Made by a program: the position numbers and the translations under genes
Notes under the pieces: generated by a model
Database searches by the model: none
Seen by the model: only the letters and a program-made list of their open reading frames with translations
Told to the model about the DNA's origin: nothing
NCBI GenBank assembly: GCA_029777145.1
Contig: JAKOSS010000924.1
Span: 1-8,783, forward strand
DNA length: 8,783 nt
Direction: 5' to 3'
Source of the DNA: Acidobacteriota bacterium
Lineage (GTDB): Bacteria; Acidobacteriota; Blastocatellia; Pyrinomonadales; Pyrinomonadaceae
Part shown: positions 1,626-8,783 of the stretch, piece by piece
How positions within the stretch are numbered: the stretch's first letter is position 1
How the letters are laid out: each line of letters begins with the position of its first letter

Positions 1626-3581
1626 ATGCGAGATACCCCGGTCGGAAACGGCTCGTTGCTCGTCACCTTTGACGACAAGTACCAGATCCGCGACATCTAT
1701 TTTCCGCACGTCGGACAGGAAAACCACACCGAAGGCTACCCGTTCCGGTTCGGCGTGTGGGTCGACGGCAAGTTTTCGTGGATCCACGACGACGGCTGGA
1801 AACGCAAACTCAAATATCTCAAGGAAACGCTGGTCACCGACGTCCGGCTGATAAATGAAGAACTCGGCGTCGAGCTCGTTTGCAACGACACCGTCGCGAG
1901 CCACGAGAACATTTTCCTGCGGCGTGTCCGGGTCAGCAACCTGCTCGACAAACGCCGCGAGGTCCGCATCTTCCTTCACCACGATTTCCGCATTTCGGAG
2001 AACAAGATCGGCGACACGGCGTTCTACGATCCCGAAAGCCACGCGCTGATCCATTACAAAAAGAATCGCTATTTTCTGATCAATTCAAGCCCGCAGTTCG
2101 ATCGTTTCACGACCGGACGCAAGGCGTTCCGCGAGCATGAGGGAACATGGCGCGACGCCGAGGACGGCGAGTTGAGCGGCGGCGCGATCACCGAAGGTTC
2201 GGTCGATTCGACGGTCCAGTTCAATTTCGATCTTCAGGCGCAGGCGTCGGCGGAATTCTACTACTGGATCGCCGCCGGCGAATCGCACGACGAGGTCTGG
2301 CGAATGAACGAGTATGTTCACGCCCAAACCCCGCGCGGACTTTTGAACTACACCGAAAACTTCTGGCGCGCCTGGGTCAACAAGAACGACATCGAATTCG
2401 ACGACCTCAGTCCTGAAATTGTCGAGCTTTACAAACGCTCGCTGCTGATCGTCAAAACCCAGATCGACAATTGCGGATCGATCCTCGCCGCCAACGATTC
2501 CGACGTCGCCGAACGCGCGACCGATCATTACAGCTATCTCTGGACGCGCGACGGAGCATTCGTCGCGAACGCTCTCGACACCGCGGGCTACCCGGCGCTG
2601 ACCCGCAACTTCCTCAAATTCTGCGCGCACATCGTCCACGAAGACGGATATTTTCTCCAGAAGTACAATGCGGACGGCACCGTCGCGTCGGGCTGGCACG
2701 CGAGTTGGGACGCGTGGGCGCGGCGCCGGCTGATCCCGATCCAGGAAGACGAGACGGCGCTCGTGCTTTGGGAAATGTGGCAGCATTACGATCAATTCCG
2801 CGAGATCGAATTCGCGCACCAGCTCTATCACAAGCTGATCGTCCGCTGCGCCGATTTTCTGTACCAATTCCGGAATCCGGAAACCGGATTGCCGCTGCCG
2901 AGCTGGAATCTTTGGGAAGACCGGCGCGGGATCCACACCTTCACCTGCTCGACGGTCGTCGGCGGGCTCAGGGCGGCGGCGAATTTTGCGGAACTGTTCG
3001 GCGAAAACGATCGCGCGAACATTTATGACCGGGCTGCCGACGAGGTCGTCGCGGGCATGAAAGAACACCTGTGGAGCAACGAACTCGGTCGGTTCCTGAG
3101 ATCGCTCGAGACGAACGACGACGTCAACTTCAAGGCCGACACGATCGTCGGCGCCGAATTGTTCGCCGTCTTCTATTTCGGCGCGTTCGATGTCGATGAC
3201 CCGATGGTCACCGCGACGATGCGCGCGATCGAAGACCGTCTCTGGGTCCCGACCGACATCGGCGGCGTCGCCCGATTCGAATACGACGGCTACATGCGCG
3301 TCACGAACGACACGACCGGAAATCCGTGGTTCATCTGCACGCTTTGGCTCGCCGCCTACCGCGTCGCCGTCGCGAAGAAAGCTGAAGATCTGAAAGGCGC
3401 GCTCGAGCTTCTCGAATGGACCGCCAAGCGCGCGCTTCCCTCCGGCGTCCTCGCGGAACAACTCAATCCGCTCAACGGCGAACCCGCTTCCGTGTCACCG
3501 CTCACCTGGTCGCACTCGACCTTCGTCGAGACCGTCGCGAGCTACCTCAAAAAACGTCGCGAACTGTTAGTTGCTAATTGA
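1626..3581 (+). CDS. Glycoside hydrolase family 15 (glucoamylase-type)
   Basis: This 651-residue enzyme has the two-domain layout of prokaryotic GH15 proteins. An N-terminal beta-sandwich (about 1-255, opening TPVGNGSLLVTFDDKYQIRD) is followed by an (alpha/alpha)6 catalytic barrel (about 265-645). Substrate-site motifs are Y-L-W306-T-R-D309-G and the segment IQEDETALVLWEMW. The presumed general acid is E431 in WNLWEDRRG, and the presumed base is E611 in LAEQLNPLNGEP, followed by the usual WSHSTF. The family inverts and removes glucose from chain ends of alpha-glucans; related members act on dextran or trehalose, so the exact substrate is open. There is no signal peptide, so it should work in the cytoplasm on glycogen or imported maltodextrins. 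Its last six codons (ELLVAN) and the stop lie inside the inverted repeat of the downstream cassette, so the C-terminus has probably been altered by that insertion. Confidence 0.93.
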   Translation: MRDTPVGNGSLLVTFDDKYQIRDIYFPHVGQENHTEGYPFRFGVWVDGKFSWIHDDGWKRKLKYLKETLVTDVRLINEELGVELVCNDTVASHENIFLRRVRVSNLLDKRREVRIFLHHDFRISENKIGDTAFYDPESHALIHYKKNRYFLINSSPQFDRFTTGRKAFREHEGTWRDAEDGELSGGAITEGSVDSTVQFNFDLQAQASAEFYYWIAAGESHDEVWRMNEYVHAQTPRGLLNYTENFWRAWVNKNDIEFDDLSPEIVELYKRSLLIVKTQIDNCGSILAANDSDVAERATDHYSYLWTRDGAFVANALDTAGYPALTRNFLKFCAHIVHEDGYFLQKYNADGTVASGWHASWDAWARRRLIPIQEDETALVLWEMWQHYDQFREIEFAHQLYHKLIVRCADFLYQFRNPETGLPLPSWNLWEDRRGIHTFTCSTVVGGLRAAANFAELFGENDRANIYDRAADEVVAGMKEHLWSNELGRFLRSLETNDDVNFKADTIVGAELFAVFYFGAFDVDDPMVTATMRAIEDRLWVPTDIGGVARFEYDGYMRVTNDTTGNPWFICTLWLAAYRVAVAKKAEDLKGALELLEWTAKRALPSGVLAEQLNPLNGEPASVSPLTWSHSTFVETVASYLKKRRELLVAN

Positions 3582-3595
3582 GAGTTGAAAGTTGA
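3561..3595 (+). repeat. Left inverted repeat, built of 7-base units
   Basis: Paired with 3971-4005, this arm gives 32 Watson-Crick pairs, two G-U pairs (3568 with 3998, 3591 with 3975) and one mismatch (3574 with 3992) over 35 positions. It divides into heptads: AACTGTT (3562), AGTTGCT (3569), AATTGAG (3576), AGTTGAA (3583) and AGTTGAA (3590). Its outer part encodes the end of the GH15 protein, and the GH15 stop is at 3579-3581. Confidence 0.85.
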
Positions 3596-3597
3596 AA

Positions 3598-3603
3598 AAG
3601 GAG
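3598..3603 (+). promoter_or_regulatory. Strong Shine-Dalgarno site deciding the start at 3610
   Basis: AAGGAG lies six bases before the ATG at 3610 and just inside the left inverted repeat. It settles the start in favour of ATG 3610 over the in-frame TTG at 3592, which lies within the repeat. It is the only near-perfect site of this kind before any gene in the window. Confidence 0.8.
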
Positions 3604-3609
3604 AACCTC

Positions 3610-3966
3610 ATGAAGAAAAACATCACACTCGAAAAGTCCTACAACTTTGCCATACGAATAATCCGCCTCTGCAAATACCTGAATGAAAGGAAGAACGAAT
3701 ACATTATCTCGAAACAGGTGCTTTACACCGGAACGAACATCGCCGCTTTTGTTGAGGAAGCGCAGCAGGCGGACGATCGTGACGACTTCGCGAAATCGCT
3801 TTCGTCGGCAAACAAGAACGCGTTCAAGACGAACTTCTGGCTGCGTTTGCTAAAAGACGGCGAATATCTCGGTGACGAAATGTTCGAATCGATCATGGCA
3901 GATTGCGAAGAACTGCAGAAGATCCTCGTAAGCTCACTGAAAACGACTAGGTCAACAGTCAACTAA
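3610..3966 (+). CDS. Four-helix-bundle protein, 23S rRNA IVS family
   Basis: This 118-residue, mostly helical, charged protein has the family hallmarks: a first helix (about 8-27), the stretch S34-K-Q to N43-I-A-A-F-V-E-E50 corresponding to the usual Arg/Ser-rich 'anieEa' segment, a helix around 56-72, and F76-W-L-R-L-L near the last turn. Related proteins are encoded by intervening sequences within 23S rRNA of Leptospira and Coxiella and as free genes elsewhere; the same fold occurs in Avd of diversity-generating retroelements. Biochemical function is unknown for the free-standing kind; RNA binding is an inference. The gene fills a cassette with inverted ends and has its own strong Shine-Dalgarno site. 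Its last codons (about 3949-3966) also show repeat-like sequence on the opposite strand. Base composition is A+T-rich, most strongly at the 5' end (about 40% G+C over 3601-3720). Confidence 0.85.
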   Translation: MKKNITLEKSYNFAIRIIRLCKYLNERKNEYIISKQVLYTGTNIAAFVEEAQQADDRDDFAKSLSSANKNAFKTNFWLRLLKDGEYLGDEMFESIMADCEELQKILVSSLKTTRSTVN

Positions 3967-3970
3967 GATC

Positions 3971-4005
3971 TCAATTTTCAACTCTCAATTATCAACTGAC
4001 AGTTC
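3971..4005 (-). repeat. Right inverted repeat, built of 7-base units
   Basis: This is the complement of the left arm. Read on the minus strand from 4004 its heptads are AACTGTC, AGTTGAT, AATTGAG, AGTTGAA and AATTGAG, in the same phase as the left arm. It begins five bases after the stop of the four-helix-bundle gene and ends seven bases before the predicted pyk -35 box. Degenerate heptads may continue inward to about 3949 (TTGACTG, TTGACCT on the minus strand). Confidence 0.85.
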
Positions 4006-4052: not shown

Positions 4053-5501
4053 ATGGGCAGAGCAAAAACACTGGCGACGCTCGGACCCGCGTCGAGTTCG
4101 CCCGAGATCATCGAGAAAATGATCGAAGCCGGGCTCAATGCGGTCCGGATCAATATGTCGCACGGCAAGACCGACGAACATGCGGAACGCATACGGATCG
4201 CGCGCGAAGTTGCGCGCAAACTCGATCGGCCGTTATCGATCCTCGTTGATCTTTCAGGGCCGAAGATCCGGACGGGAGTACTTCATGAGGCGCGGCCCGT
4301 CGTTCTTGAACGCGGCGCGCAATTCGTTTTGACGTCGCGCGAGATCGAAGGCTCGGCGAAAGAAGTTTCGACGAATTATAAGGAGATCCCGAAACTCGTC
4401 CGGCCAGGCGACAAGATCCTGCTCGATGACGGCGCGATCGAACTCAAGGTTAACGCCGTTACCGAAACCGACGTCGTGACGGAGGTCGTGGACGGCGGAG
4501 TGCTTTCCGAACGCAAGGGCATAAATCTTCCAAACACGAAACTTCCGATCCCGAGCCTGACTGAAAAAGATCGCCGCGATCTCGAATGGGCGATGACGCA
4601 GGACGTCGATTACATCGCGCTGTCGTTCGTCCGCGAGGGCAAGGACTGCCGCGAGGTCCGCGAGATGATCAAGCAGATGAACATGCGGAAGTGGGGCCGC
4701 CCGATGCTCGTCGCGAAGATCGAAAAGGCCGAGGCGATCGAGAATCTCGACGATATCATTGAGGAGACCGACGGGCTGATGGTTGCGCGCGGCGATCTCG
4801 GCGTCGAAACGAGCGCCGAACTCGTTCCCGTTTATCAGAAGCGGATCATCGAAAAGGCGGTCAAGGCCGACAAGTTTGTCATCACCGCGACGCAGATGCT
4901 GCAGTCGATGGTCGACAACCCGCGTCCGACGCGCGCCGAGGCGTCTGACGTCGCCAACGCCGTTTGGGACGGAACCGACGCCGTGATGCTTTCGGCCGAA
5001 ACCGCTTCGGGCAAGTATCCGGTCGAATCGGTCGAGACGATGGAACGCATCATTTCGACTTCCGAATCGGTGAAAAACACGCGTCTCATCCGGCCGATCA
5101 GGTTCTCGGACAAGCCGACCGGACGAACGTCGCAGGCGATCTGCAAAGCCGCCGCGATCTGCGCGCAGGAGATCGGGACCGAAAAAGTGGCGGTCTTCAC
5201 CGAATCCGGGTTGATGGCGCGTCGGTTGTCGTCCGTCCGCTCGAGCCTTTCAACATTCGCTCTCACGAACACGCGCGAGGTTTACAATCAGCTCGCGTTG
5301 ATCTGGGGTGTCGAACCGCTGCTCCACGATATGGCGTCGACGACCGAGGAAATGCTCTCGGACGGCGAAGCGACGCTGCTCAAGGCAAAGGTCGTCGAAC
5401 CCGGCGAAACGATCGTCATGATGGCCGGCCGGCTTTCAGGCCTCGGACTTTCGAGCTCGGTCGTCGTCTGGACCATCGGCGAGAACGTCCCGAAGCGTTA
5501 G
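4053..5501 (+). CDS. pyk: Pyruvate kinase
   Basis: This 482-residue cytoplasmic enzyme transfers phosphate from phosphoenolpyruvate to ADP in the last step of glycolysis. All domains are present: the A-domain barrel (about 1-70 and 158-335), the B-domain lid (about 71-157) and the C-domain (about 350-482). Key residues are intact: R32-I-N34-M-S36-H-G, D66-L-S-G-P-K-I-R, the catalytic K222 in AKIEKAEAIEN with E224, D248 in ARGDLGVE, T280 in TATQML, and the SAETASGKYP loop. Length is normal for bacterial type I/II enzymes. The ATG at 4053 is preferred to an in-frame TTG at 4047 because the protein then opens GRAKTLATLGPASS as in relatives. It follows a plausible promoter and is trailed after three bases by a nine-cysteine gene. 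A second PK-family gene lies about 1.7 kb away on the other strand. Confidence 0.97.
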   Translation: MGRAKTLATLGPASSSPEIIEKMIEAGLNAVRINMSHGKTDEHAERIRIAREVARKLDRPLSILVDLSGPKIRTGVLHEARPVVLERGAQFVLTSREIEGSAKEVSTNYKEIPKLVRPGDKILLDDGAIELKVNAVTETDVVTEVVDGGVLSERKGINLPNTKLPIPSLTEKDRRDLEWAMTQDVDYIALSFVREGKDCREVREMIKQMNMRKWGRPMLVAKIEKAEAIENLDDIIEETDGLMVARGDLGVETSAELVPVYQKRIIEKAVKADKFVITATQMLQSMVDNPRPTRAEASDVANAVWDGTDAVMLSAETASGKYPVESVETMERIISTSESVKNTRLIRPIRFSDKPTGRTSQAICKAAAICAQEIGTEKVAVFTESGLMARRLSSVRSSLSTFALTNTREVYNQLALIWGVEPLLHDMASTTEEMLSDGEATLLKAKVVEPGETIVMMAGRLSGLGLSSSVVVWTIGENVPKR

Positions 5502-5828: not shown

Positions 5829-7145
5829 TCAGACGAAAAGGAATCCGAGAAAACTGGCGCCGATGATGATCAGCATCGAGACCCCGAATTTGATCGCGAA
5901 CGGCTTGCTTCCCTGCAGATAGCAATAGAAGGTCTTCGCCAGAAGGTTCGTCGCGTTAACCAGGATGAAGGTCAGCATGGCGAATCCGAACGTCACTTTT
6001 TCACCCGCCATCACCGCCAGGTTGATGAGTATCGCGTCGACTCCGGCGAACGAGGCGATGACCGCCCCGGCAACGAATCCCGCCTTGCCGAAAAGTATCA
6101 GACTGAGGTTCGTGAGAAGCTTGACGATCAGGATCAGCGCGGCGAATTTGAGCGCAGGTATGATCGAAAAGATCGGTTTTTCGACGATGCCGCCCTCGTC
6201 GGAATTCTGGCCTTCGTCATCCTTTCGAAATCGGAAGAAATAGAAACTCAACGCCGTCCCGCTCGCGATCATGATCAGGAGAGTTGGCAGGATCGCGATC
6301 AGCCAATGCCGGTTCAGCGGCCCGATCAAGAGGAACATCTGGAAAAAGCTCGCGAGGTTCGCGAGGACCGCCGCGCCGACGAGCGCGTTGCCGTTCGTGT
6401 CGTTTGCACTCTTCTGCGCCAAAGACTGAGTGGTCACCGTCGACGAGACGAATCCGCCGATGAAGCTCGAAACCGCAAACCCGCGCTTCTTTCCGAAAAC
6501 GCGTCCGAGGATGTATCCGAGGAGATCGATGCCGGTGATCAGCACGACGATGAACCAGAGTCGCTGCGGATTGATCAATTCGAGCGAATCGAACGTCGCA
6601 ACGTCGATCTTCATTTCCGCGAGTGCGTTCCGAACGGCCGGAAAATCGGCCAAAGTGTACGTCGTGTTCGAGAGGAACGGCAGGATCACGAGACCGAGGA
6701 TCGCGAAGCTTATGAACGATTCGATCTCACCGCGGCTCACGGCGGCGATGAGTTTTTCGGACCGGCCTTTTTGCGAAAGGATGACGATGATCACGACCGC
6801 GACCGCGACGATCACGTTCAACGGCAGAATTCCGGTTCCGAGACACGCACCGATGAGGTACGTCAGAATGATCGCGATCTCGGTCGTGAACCCGAAGTCG
6901 TCGGTCTTTCGCGAAACAAAGACGTAGTGGATCGAGAGAAGAATCACGAACGCGCCGGTGGCGAACGCAAAGACCAACGGAAATCCGGCGACGTAGAAGA
7001 TCGACCCGATGCAACCGAGCAGCCCGATCAGCGAGAACGTCCGGATGCCGGAATCGGAAAGATGGCCGGAACTTTGACGTTCCAGTCCGATCGCCGCGCC
7101 GAGCAGCAAAGCAAGGACCAGGTTTGGAACATAGGATTCGAACAT
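5829..7145 (-). CDS. MgtC/SapB family membrane protein with DUF4010
   Basis: This 438-residue integral membrane protein has many hydrophobic segments. The N-terminal MgtC/SapB domain (about 8-135) carries the signature G16-A-A-I-G-L-E22-R and G33-I-R-T-F-S-L-I-G. The C-terminal half (about 190-435) matches the DUF4010 module, with the motif G230-G-F-V-S-S-T-V-T-T. A charged loop (about 305-325, rich in Asp, Glu and Lys) separates membrane segments of the second half. MgtC proteins are tied to magnesium limitation and membrane-energy control in some pathogens; the fused DUF4010 form is common in environmental bacteria and its role is not established, so transport is only an inference. It is downstream of the second PK-family gene on the same strand with a 69-base gap, and may share its transcript or use the TACAAT box at 7164-7169. 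Confidence 0.88.
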   Translation of the reverse strand: MFESYVPNLVLALLLGAAIGLERQSSGHLSDSGIRTFSLIGLLGCIGSIFYVAGFPLVFAFATGAFVILLSIHYVFVSRKTDDFGFTTEIAIILTYLIGACLGTGILPLNVIVAVAVVIIVILSQKGRSEKLIAAVSRGEIESFISFAILGLVILPFLSNTTYTLADFPAVRNALAEMKIDVATFDSLELINPQRLWFIVVLITGIDLLGYILGRVFGKKRGFAVSSFIGGFVSSTVTTQSLAQKSANDTNGNALVGAAVLANLASFFQMFLLIGPLNRHWLIAILPTLLIMIASGTALSFYFFRFRKDDEGQNSDEGGIVEKPIFSIIPALKFAALILIVKLLTNLSLILFGKAGFVAGAVIASFAGVDAILINLAVMAGEKVTFGFAMLTFILVNATNLLAKTFYCYLQGSKPFAIKFGVSMLIIIGASFLGFLFV

Positions 7146-7214: not shown

Positions 7215-8783
7215 TCACGGAGTCCCTTGTCGCGCCGCACGCGCCGTCGGTTTCTCGCTCACGCTAAAGACGTGCGCGAGCCTTAGTTCGCGGAGCATCG
7301 CCCGCTTCTTTGTCTGATGCGCCTGCATCCGGCGAAGAATCTGATCGAGTACGCGGACCGCGCTGACGACGTGCGGGCCTTTGTTGAGCATCACGCATTC
7401 GGCACGATCGCCCATCGCCGCGTCGGTGATCTCCGCCCGTGACGGCATGCCGTCCTTAGCGAGGCTTTCAAGAACCTGCGTCGCCCAAATGACCGGAACG
7501 TGCGCCGCCTCGCAGATCCAGAGGATCTCTTCCTGAACTTCCGCAAGCCGCTCGAATCCGCATTCGACGGCGAGATCGCCGCGCGCGATCATCACTCCGC
7601 AGCAAGGCAAACGCATCGCTGTCAGCAGCATTTCCGGCAGATTTTCAAATCCGCGCCGCGTTTCGATCTTGAGCACGATCTTCGGAGCAGACTCGCCGAG
7701 CCGGCTCAGGTGCTTCTGCAGCAGCGCCACATCGCGCGCCGAATTCGCGAACGACAGTTCGACAACGTCGGCGTTCTTCGCGACGAATTCGAGATCGCGG
7801 ACGTCCTGCGGGGTCATCGCCGACAATTTCAAACGGCTTTCCGGCAGATTGATCCCCTTGTCGCCGCGCAGCTTTTCGCCGTTCACGCGGGCACGGGTGA
7901 TCCGCACCATGACCCGTTCGTCGTCGATGCGTTCGACGATCCCTCCGATCTTGCCGTCGTCGAACCAGATCGGCTCGCCCGAACGGACGTCGTCGAAAAC
8001 TTCGGGGATCGTGCATCCGATCGTCGCCGGAGTGAGCACGCGGCCGGCGCTGTCGAATGTCGCCGCGCGGCCCGGAACGAGGTCCCGGGTGACCACAAGT
8101 TCGTCGCCGGCATGAAGCGTCAGCACGCCTTCCGCCGGCGGAAATTCGCCGACCTCGGCCGAGACTCCGATCTCGGACTCCTTCTTGAGCCGGCGACATT
8201 TCAGGATCGTGCCAGGCGCGATGTAGGTCGTCCGTGTCGCCTCGGCCCAACAGCCGTCGGCGCAAGAATCGGCGACCGTCAAAGTCCGCTTCGATCCGCG
8301 GACGTCGGTCAGTGTTATCCGATCGCCGTTCCGCAGTTCGGCGAACCAATCGGCCGGCACCGGGATCGTGGCGTCCGCGAACGACGGAGCGGCTTCCGGC
8401 CGCGCGTCGCTCGTCAGCCAAACGCGCGCCGGCGCGACGACGCGTCCGAATGCGTCACGGGCGGGCCTGATTTTGATGACCGCGGCTCCCGGTTCGACCG
8501 GGCCGGTTCGTAGTTTGGGTCCCGCGAGGTCCATCACGACGGTGCATTTGCGCCCGATCGCCTCTTCGGCGCGGCGCAAATGCGTGATCATGCGCGACCA
8601 GGTTTCGGGATCGTCATGGGCGCAGTTTACGCGCATGCAGTCCATGCCGTTTTCAAGCAGTCGGTGGACGAGAAGATAGTCGCTCGCGGCCTCGCTGGGC
8701 ACGGTCACCATGATCCGCACCGAGCGCCCGGGTGCGACGTCGCCGAGCAGCGCCTTCGTGTTCTCGTCGAGAAGTTTGCGGCC
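7215..8783 (-). CDS. Divergent pyruvate-kinase-family protein (5' end outside window)
   Basis: The frame is open to the window edge: a GTG at 8720 is possible, but 21 further codons upstream (including KLLDENTKALLGDVAPGR) read as protein. The true start is therefore probably beyond 8783, and 522 residues are visible. Counting from the GTG, it keeps R30 and N32, D64-L-A-G-P-K, K351-I-E353, D382 in ARGDLAVE and T414 in ATQVLE. The usual N-F-S-H becomes N-C-A-H, so the Ser is Ala34. The stretch after the lysine reads TRRGFEN, and the SAETA-GKYP loop is replaced by LNKGPH. The B-domain insert (about 75-287) is roughly twice normal size and seems to hold two related copies. The C-terminal domain is missing: the protein ends soon after the barrel with a short basic tail. 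It belongs to the long PK-like class; phosphotransfer on pyruvate or another acid is unproven. Confidence 0.85.
   Translation of the reverse strand, partial: GRKLLDENTKALLGDVAPGRSVRIMVTVPSEAASDYLLVHRLLENGMDCMRVNCAHDDPETWSRMITHLRRAEEAIGRKCTVVMDLAGPKLRTGPVEPGAAVIKIRPARDAFGRVVAPARVWLTSDARPEAAPSFADATIPVPADWFAELRNGDRITLTDVRGSKRTLTVADSCADGCWAEATRTTYIAPGTILKCRRLKKESEIGVSAEVGEFPPAEGVLTLHAGDELVVTRDLVPGRAATFDSAGRVLTPATIGCTIPEVFDDVRSGEPIWFDDGKIGGIVERIDDERVMVRITRARVNGEKLRGDKGINLPESRLKLSAMTPQDVRDLEFVAKNADVVELSFANSARDVALLQKHLSRLGESAPKIVLKIETRRGFENLPEMLLTAMRLPCCGVMIARGDLAVECGFERLAEVQEEILWICEAAHVPVIWATQVLESLAKDGMPSRAEITDAAMGDRAECVMLNKGPHVVSAVRVLDQILRRMQAHQTKKRAMLRELRLAHVFSVSEKPTARAARQGTP

What the first reader, a model, noticed from the sequence alone, without database searches (positions are those of the whole stretch)
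3561..4005. rRNA-intervening-sequence-like cassette sitting between two protein genes
A single four-helix-bundle gene is enclosed by 35-base inverted ends (32 Watson-Crick pairs, 2 G-U, 1 mismatch), and the unit is A+T-richer than its neighbours. The protein family and the complementary ends are the two hallmarks of 23S rRNA intervening sequences, yet this copy is between a GH15 gene and pyk. It may be a non-autonomous mobile element whose mobilising enzyme lies elsewhere, or the protein itself may take part.
Basis: partly seen in the sequence, partly recalled or inferred. Interest (0 to 1): 0.75.

Follow-up and report, generated by a model that had tools for sequence, protein, structure and literature searches.

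The report
Hairpin-enclosed gene cassette in operons
A small gene related to those hidden inside some bacterial ribosomal RNA genes sits here between two ordinary genes, wrapped in a long hairpin made of repeated seven-base words; its relatives are found the same way at gene junctions of very different bacteria, present in one species and missing from its sister, which points to an overlooked kind of mobile element.

Summary
In detail: 35 positions with 32 Watson-Crick pairs, 2 G-U and 1 mismatch enclose one PF05635 gene between GH15 and pyk; no rRNA in the window. The arms are not ordinary terminal repeats: each is a degenerate tandem array of 7-base units, mirrored by the other. This is general: of 132 measurable PF05635 genes from several phyla, 87 have paired arms (6 of 261 control genes); the dominant period is 7 in 96 and 8 in 27. 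The unit sequence differs between copies; the period follows the protein tree. Armed cassettes (median 477 nt) start at the upstream stop codon and end about 9 nt before the next start, mostly in sense among co-directional genes (44 sense, 4 antisense). One paa gene cluster holds four different ones. In one Bacteroidota genus, sister genomes have the same junctions without the cassette. Best reading: a mobile element built like the 23S intervening sequence, tolerated because its RNA stem is cut. RNA processing, the protein's role and the way it moves are inferred; the window's own genome is not held.

The parts
1626..3581 (+). Upstream gene, GH15 family (oligosaccharide amylase-like, below that model's cut-off); its last residues and stop codon are made by the left arm
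3561..3595 (+). Left arm (pairing extends to 3557)
3564..3598 (+). Five degenerate heptads CTGTTAG TTGCTAA TTGAGAG TTGAAAG TTGAAAA
   Evidence: lag-7 match 0.62
3600..3603 (+). GGAG, likely ribosome-binding site of the enclosed gene, just after the array
   Evidence: sequence
3610..3966 (+). PF05635 / TIGR02436 four-helix-bundle protein, 118 aa
3971..4005 (+). Right arm, inverted copy of the left array (pairing extends to 4009)
   Evidence: mirrored unit order
4053..5501 (+). Downstream gene pyk, pyruvate kinase

Best explanation
It is one copy of a widespread family of small (about 0.45-0.5 kb) mobile cassettes built like the 23S rRNA intervening sequence but living at junctions between protein genes. 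SHOWN, mostly on Bacteroidota and plasmid relatives: a PF05635 gene in the loop of a hairpin whose arms are tandem 7- or 8-base units; sense orientation among co-directional genes; left arm at the upstream stop codon, right arm just before the next start; absence of the whole cassette at the same junction in sister genomes. INFERRED: the arms pair in the mRNA, an RNase III-type enzyme cuts the stem, the gene's RNA is released and the neighbouring messages are separated, so that an insertion at the stop codon does little harm. INFERRED: the protein, structurally a relative of the DGR protein Avd, binds the repeated stem. INFERRED and least certain: it helps the cassette to move, perhaps through RNA.
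For: Arm score 14 or more in 87 of 132 PF05635 genes against 6 of 261 control genes; best lag 7 in 96 and 8 in 27 of 132, against 56 and 29 of 261 control genes; an earlier control gave 37 of 61 against 3 of 1382 random placements at score 15. Orientation: 44 of 50 with both neighbours on the same strand (206 of 310 other genes); 44 sense and 4 antisense between co-directional neighbours. Upstream stop to left arm start: median -1 nt, 66 of 76 within -30 to +40; right arm end to next start: median 9 nt, 77 loci. Cassette absent at the thiolase-paaY junction in 2 of 8 genomes, at paaZ-hydratase in 5 of 8 (one with flanks 98 and 91% identical to the filled site), at paaI-thiolase in 1 of 8. Window stem -147.9 kcal/mol; the Coxiella IVS is reported as 444 nt (428 by end mapping) with a 28-bp stem, -143.26 kcal/mol, ORF in the loop, cut by RNase III in mid-stem (passages of PMC4990558). 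Fold: 2rld, 2gsc, then, more weakly, Avd 4dwl and the DGR RNP 8ube. In the window the unit order itself is mirrored: score 29 against a mean of 17.1, 0 of 200 unit shuffles reached it.
Against: 45 of 132 genes have no arms above the threshold, so the hairpin is not universal. Lag 7 is also the largest single class among control genes, 56 of 261. In one orthologous set (A) the left arm changed between species while the right arm did not. Unit order is mirrored beyond 95% of shuffles in only 23 of 72 tested loci. No fixed ends and no clear target duplication were seen; in a Nostoc plasmid the cassette stands where related plasmids have 188 other bases. No mobilising enzyme belongs to the cassette. 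None of the 14 well-known control genomes has the family. No expression or cleavage data. Results from Bacteroidota are carried over to the probably acidobacterial window.
Confidence: 0.6

Rival explanations
1. A resident regulatory element, not a mobile one: the protein binds its own stem and tunes the stability or spacing of neighbouring messages; the repeat arrays drift by slippage.
For: Sense orientation and placement at gene junctions; the cassette stays at one junction in several species (five genomes in set C); in three relatives the gene lies on the GH15 contig.
Against: Sister species with the junction empty and, at the same junction, a different PF05635 gene: G039 in set C (same larger clade, but farther from G055's gene than one from another genome, L055, is) and G102 and G101 in set B (by eye); four different cassettes in one gene cluster.
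Confidence: 0.2
2. A DNA transposable element of the MITE type, moved in trans by a transposase that reads the inverted arms as DNA.
For: Inverted ends, absence of the whole unit in sister species, hairpins with period-7 or -8 arms but no gene (9 of 20 short-loop hairpins in 41 regions, 0 at other lags from 4 to 12; orthologous copies counted apart).
Against: The arm sequence differs between nearly all fetched copies of one genome, which a sequence-reading transposase would hardly allow; strong sense bias; no constant target duplication seen (read by eye).
Confidence: 0.12
3. The arms are merely heptanucleotide arrays of the general sort that bacterial genomes collect in spacers, and the gene is an ordinary passenger.
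For: Heptamer arrays are widespread (MacGregor 2015), lag 7 is the largest class among control genes too, and on a cyanobacterial plasmid pieces of one cassette match at 38 places.
Against: Paired arms are rare around control genes of the same Bacteroidota regions (6 of 261); both arms share one unit and face each other; the period follows the protein tree.
Confidence: 0.08

Closest known systems
23S rRNA intervening sequence (IVS) with S23/IVP ORF, e.g. Coxiella, Leptospira
   Same: PF05635-type ORF in the loop of a long terminal stem, total length about 0.43-0.45 kb, similar stem length and fold energy (abstract and passages of PMC4990558)
   Different: Lies between protein genes, not in a 23S helix (no rRNA match in the window or in 60 other loci scanned); arms are 7- or 8-base arrays; whether true 23S IVS arms are periodic was not tested
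Avd of diversity-generating retroelements
   Same: Fold (4dwl, 8ube; weak, below-cut-off bAvd profile hits on two homologues); the resemblance of PF05635 to Avd is already in print (PMC10053308, passages)
   Different: No reverse transcriptase among the window's scanned ORFs; template and variable repeats not searched for as such
TAACTGA heptamer direct repeats of Beggiatoaceae, Cyanobacteria and Bacteroidetes (MacGregor 2015, PMC4679880)
   Same: Period 7, intergenic, often close to start codons (abstract, two passages and section 10 seen)
   Different: One unit, almost always direct repeats; the terms intervening, S23, four helix, helix bundle and 23S do not occur in the main text
Heptanucleotide repeats in the P6b stem of the cyanobacterial tRNA-Leu intron; cyanobacterial STRRs; REP/RAYT and MITE hairpins (all recalled, not read)
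   Same: Complementary heptad arrays or dispersed hairpins
   Different: As recalled, no PF05635 gene inside; different hosts or movers

Membership tests
PF05635 / TIGR02436 four-helix-bundle (IVP) protein | Profile score over the curated cut-off | tested here: met
   63.5 over 33.8 and 71.1 over 24 bits
PF05635 / TIGR02436 four-helix-bundle (IVP) protein | Four-helix bundle fold of 2rld/2gsc | tested here: met
   model pLDDT 94.9, TM (query) 0.88-0.91 to the five 2rld chains
23S rRNA intervening sequence | Inserted in a helix of 23S rRNA | tested here: not met
   no Rfam match in the window; flanks are GH15 and pyk
23S rRNA intervening sequence | Complementary ends forming a long stem | tested here: met
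   32 WC + 2 G-U of 35; fold z -5.36
23S rRNA intervening sequence | Excision from RNA by RNase III | not testable with these tools
   needs RNA data
Diversity-generating retroelement | Reverse transcriptase beside the Avd-like gene | tested here: not met
   nine main ORFs of the window scanned against Pfam, none a reverse transcriptase
Transposable element with fixed terminal inverted repeats | Same ends in different copies | tested here: not met
   arms differ between nearly all fetched copies of seven genomes; exception L004/L006 in G001; not testable in the window's own genome
Mobile element in general | Empty and filled versions of one site in relatives | tested here: met
   for Bacteroidota relatives of the cassette; not for the window's own locus
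Transposable element | Target-site duplication | tested here: inconclusive
   junctions read by eye, no constant duplication; 188 bp replaced in Nostoc

The most novel reading that the evidence does not exclude
A class of mobile element recognised by the period of its stem and not by its sequence: a ring of IVP subunits (the solved relatives 2rld and 2gsc have five chains) would grip a hairpin of about five repeated units, one per subunit, so that any 7- (or, in other lineages, 8-) base word will do. The element would spread through an RNA hairpin into stop-codon junctions of operons. 23S intervening sequences, gene-less heptad hairpins and perhaps the scattered heptamer arrays of cyanobacteria would be its offshoots.
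Probability: 0.2. Interest if true: 0.95.

Novelty: new variant of a known kind. Interest (0 to 1): 0.8.

Why it matters
The function and origin of 23S intervening sequences, and whether their ORF served mobility, are described as unclear more than 25 years after their discovery (PMC4990558, discussion passage). Here are plentiful relatives outside rRNA (74 of 99 sampled Bacteroidota genomes over the cut-off; at least 40 sampled Bacteroidota loci without any rRNA match), with filled and empty sites in sister species, so that movement, RNA processing and protein-stem binding can be tested on ordinary genes. A conserved period with free sequence would be an unusual recognition code, and cutting messages at such stems would change how operons carrying them are expressed.

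Tried and rejected
Own genome: not held. Genome-collection scan with the IVP protein: one relative only. Viral contigs: 2 loci. Phages: 1 record. A second look for the IVP gene on GH15 contigs (best 120 of 7984 shown) gave no further contig-length match; with a capped list this does not show absence. Fixed terminal repeats of a transposon were rejected because arm sequences differ between copies. 'Two independent arrays that merely share a unit' was rejected for the window by unit shuffling, but not for 49 of 72 loci. The in-register comparison is biased, because the alignment picks the best register, and is not used. In the first comparison arms of other loci were the null; that null is inflated by shared units (0 to 9% of cross pairs scored as high), so the claims rest. 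Whether any PF05635 gene of the Bacteroidota genomes lies in a 23S gene, by whole-genome search: not answered (below). A control of spacers alone, matched for length, was not run. Papers listed but not opened include PMC2672173; of PMC11270868 only a term search was seen (none of six terms present).

Rows dropped before counts: loci L018-L047 that lie inside larger fetched regions, loci L001, L008 and L009, near-identical duplicates, matches under about 80 residues, and 3 of 135 genes with too little flank; the loci of the genus comparison (L088-L174) were kept out for independence. Of the 132, 106 had a clear 7 or 8 label, and the tree test used 89 of these (under 75% identical to each other). 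The survey list shows only the best matches ('more matches are not listed'), and the fetched loci were taken from that list, so weaker family members are under-represented.
Full report
THE FEATURE. It holds one gene, 3610-3966, over the cut-offs of PF05635 (23S_rRNA_IVP) and TIGR02436. The unit has 44% G+C, the neighbours 59-60%. As RNA the arms close a stem; the fold energy is 5.4 standard deviations below shuffled sequence. The window has no match to any Rfam family at gathering thresholds. Some GH15 relatives carry the names Pyrinomonadaceae or Acidobacteriota, so the host is probably an acidobacterium; its genome is not held.

WHAT THE ARMS ARE. The left arm reads CTGTTAG TTGCTAA TTGAGAG TTGAAAG TTGAAAA: five degenerate heptads. 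The match at lag 7 is 0.62 against 0.13-0.29 at the other lags from 3 to 11. The right arm is the inverted copy, and the order of the variants is mirrored too: cutting the right arm into units and shuffling them lowers the score from 29 to a mean of 17.1, and none of 200 shuffles reached 29.

THE SAME IN OTHER PHYLA. In the first 14 PF05635 genes measured (six of Leyella, three on cyanobacterial plasmids, one each on a Bernardetia and a Treponema plasmid, two viral contigs, the window), 13 had best-paired arms with a lag-7 match of 0.57 or more; L002 did not. A survey found the family in 75 of 99 Bacteroidota genomes, 74 over the cut-off, and in 0 of 14 well-known control genomes. From 124 regions 135 distinct genes were taken and 132 measured. 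Arm score 14 or more: 87 of 132, against 6 of 261 other genes of the large regions. The dominant lag was 7 in 96 and 8 in 27 of 132; in the control genes 7 led too, but with 56 of 261, and 8 had 29, the other lags from 5 to 12 having 18 to 45 each. The unit varies freely: TTGAAAG in the window and units such as GATTAGT, ATTCGTA, ATTCGCA, GAGGTCG, TTCAAAA, CCAGTGA and TTTTGAA in its kin; of the 19 genes in the smallest well-supported set holding the window, 18 are labelled period 7 and one (L240) is unlabelled. On the protein tree the 7/8 label changes 9 times, against a mean of 18.1 and a minimum of 14 in 300 shuffles, 89 genes. So the period goes with the protein lineage while the letters do not. 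The tree rests on 105 columns and 54 of 128 inner branches are open.

WHERE THEY SIT. Of 50 genes with callable neighbours in the large Bacteroidota regions, 44 have both neighbours on their own strand (206 of 310 for other genes), 4 are antisense between co-directional genes, 2 are mixed. For the 87 armed genes, the longest sense frame ending within 260 nt upstream was taken: 76 have one, and its stop lies at the left arm start (median -1 nt; 66 of 76 within -30 to +40; inside the arm in 32); 11 have none. The right arm ends a median of 9 nt before the next sense start (77 loci), and the cassette is 477 nt long at the median (87 loci). In the window too the arm supplies the stop codon of GH15; pyk starts 47 nt after the right arm. 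One cluster makes the point: in L079, all on one strand, paaC, paaD, a paaG-like gene, a PaaH-like gene, paaI, thiolase, a paaY-like gene, an unnamed gene, paaZ and a hydratase-like gene run in this order, and four different PF05635 genes stand in four of the junctions. Annotated plasmid copies sit between drmD and an MmeI-type enzyme, between csx2 and cas1 and after a helicase gene. In the Monoglobus plasmid the match lies unannotated between hsdS and hsdR and was not among the open frames found.

EMPTY SITES. Eight genomes of one genus were compared. Thiolase-paaY junction: the cassette is in five, a different PF05635 gene in a sixth (G039), and G066 and G101 have only 10 nt between the flanks, the whole cassette with both arms being absent. 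paaZ-hydratase junction: filled in G055, G039 and G066; absent in G100 (flanks 98% and 91% identical to the filled one), G102, G027, G101 and G070. Three of these (G100, G102, G101) bear a bare heptad array there, and G027's is 21 nt, three units, shorter. paaI-thiolase junction: by eye one lineage in five genomes, another in two, none in G070. A fourth site: filled in four; G101 carries there a hairpin with heptad arms and no gene; G066 is empty, G100 is a partial variant, and G070 had no match. Across 41 regions 20 short-loop hairpins were found; 7 have lag-7 arms and 2 lag-8 arms, none another lag from 4 to 12; some are the same site in related species. These resemble gene-less versions. 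In Nostoc sp. C052 the cassette of pC052_A is missing from pC052_D (right flank 100% identical over 435 nt, left 93% over 344 nt), but 188 other bases stand in its place, so not every event is a clean insertion. Direction (gain or loss) was not tested on a tree.

PAIRING OVER TIME. In the thiolase-paaY set the two arms changed together at three or four columns between species, in one pair of species after a slip of exactly one 8-base unit; in the fourth set the left arm changed and the right did not (read by eye, no formal covariation test). Pairing is therefore kept partly by whole-unit slippage or copying and not only base by base. Only 23 of 72 testable loci have mirrored unit order beyond 95% of shuffles; uniform arrays give the test little power.

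THE WINDOW'S LOCUS IN RELATIVES. This is indirect; adjacency was not seen. The GH15 tails of the window, P0048 and P0050 (LLVAN, LLVDN, LIIDN) look written by a heptad arm (inference). A wider protein search, of which 120 of 7984 matches are shown, added no contig match.

MECHANISM. Architecture and size match the Coxiella 23S IVS as published: 28-bp stem, ORF in the loop, RNase III cuts in mid-stem (abstract and passages). I infer the same at the mRNA level: the stem is cut, the gene's message is released and the neighbouring messages are separated. Sense orientation and the place at the stop codon fit an element selected, or moving, as RNA. The protein's fold is that of 2rld and 2gsc and, more weakly, of Avd, which stands with a reverse transcriptase in a DGR ribonucleoprotein (8ube); the solved relatives 2rld and 2gsc appear with chains A to E. 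Five units of seven bases against a five-membered ring is a suggestive but untested match. Against the RNA picture: no RNA data, 45 of 132 genes without arms over the threshold, and a mover that is unknown.

LITERATURE. Searches listed no paper that, by title, abstract start or the passages I opened, describes PF05635 genes enclosed by heptad arms or inserted in operons. They cover open-licence PubMed Central text only, and most listed papers were not opened. The nearest are MacGregor 2015 on TAACTGA heptamers (abstract, passages and one section), the Coxiella IVS paper (abstract and passages), and PMC10053308, which notes the Avd resemblance (passages).

Noticed in passing
window 7215-8783 (-): A second, divergent pyruvate-kinase-like ORF (PF00224, 177.5 bits), running off the window, 1.7 kb from pyk.
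   Followed up: no
L075 about 5880-5960; L079 about 11700: A hairpin-like stretch of about 40 nt (TTGTAAGGAATT...GTCTTAC) before some of these genes has at least ten other matches in the genus (77-92%).
   Followed up: no
L079 8635-8720, L065 8637-8721, L063 8680-8768: A gene-less hairpin with period-7 arms kept at the same junction after the paaY-like gene in three species.
   Followed up: partly
L238, L239, L017, L012: Plasmid copies lie inside or beside defence genes: DISARM drmD, CRISPR csx2-cas1, a helicase/methyltransferase set, type I restriction.
   Followed up: no
L240 1675-1856: In a gut phage contig the homologue stands next to a tRNA and a Gut-1 RNA; its best arm score is 8, no better than controls.
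   Followed up: no
L153 (G066), right end of the cassette: The right arm is expanded to a run of eight-base CTGAACTC units, while the left arm pairs with it over only a few bases.
   Followed up: no
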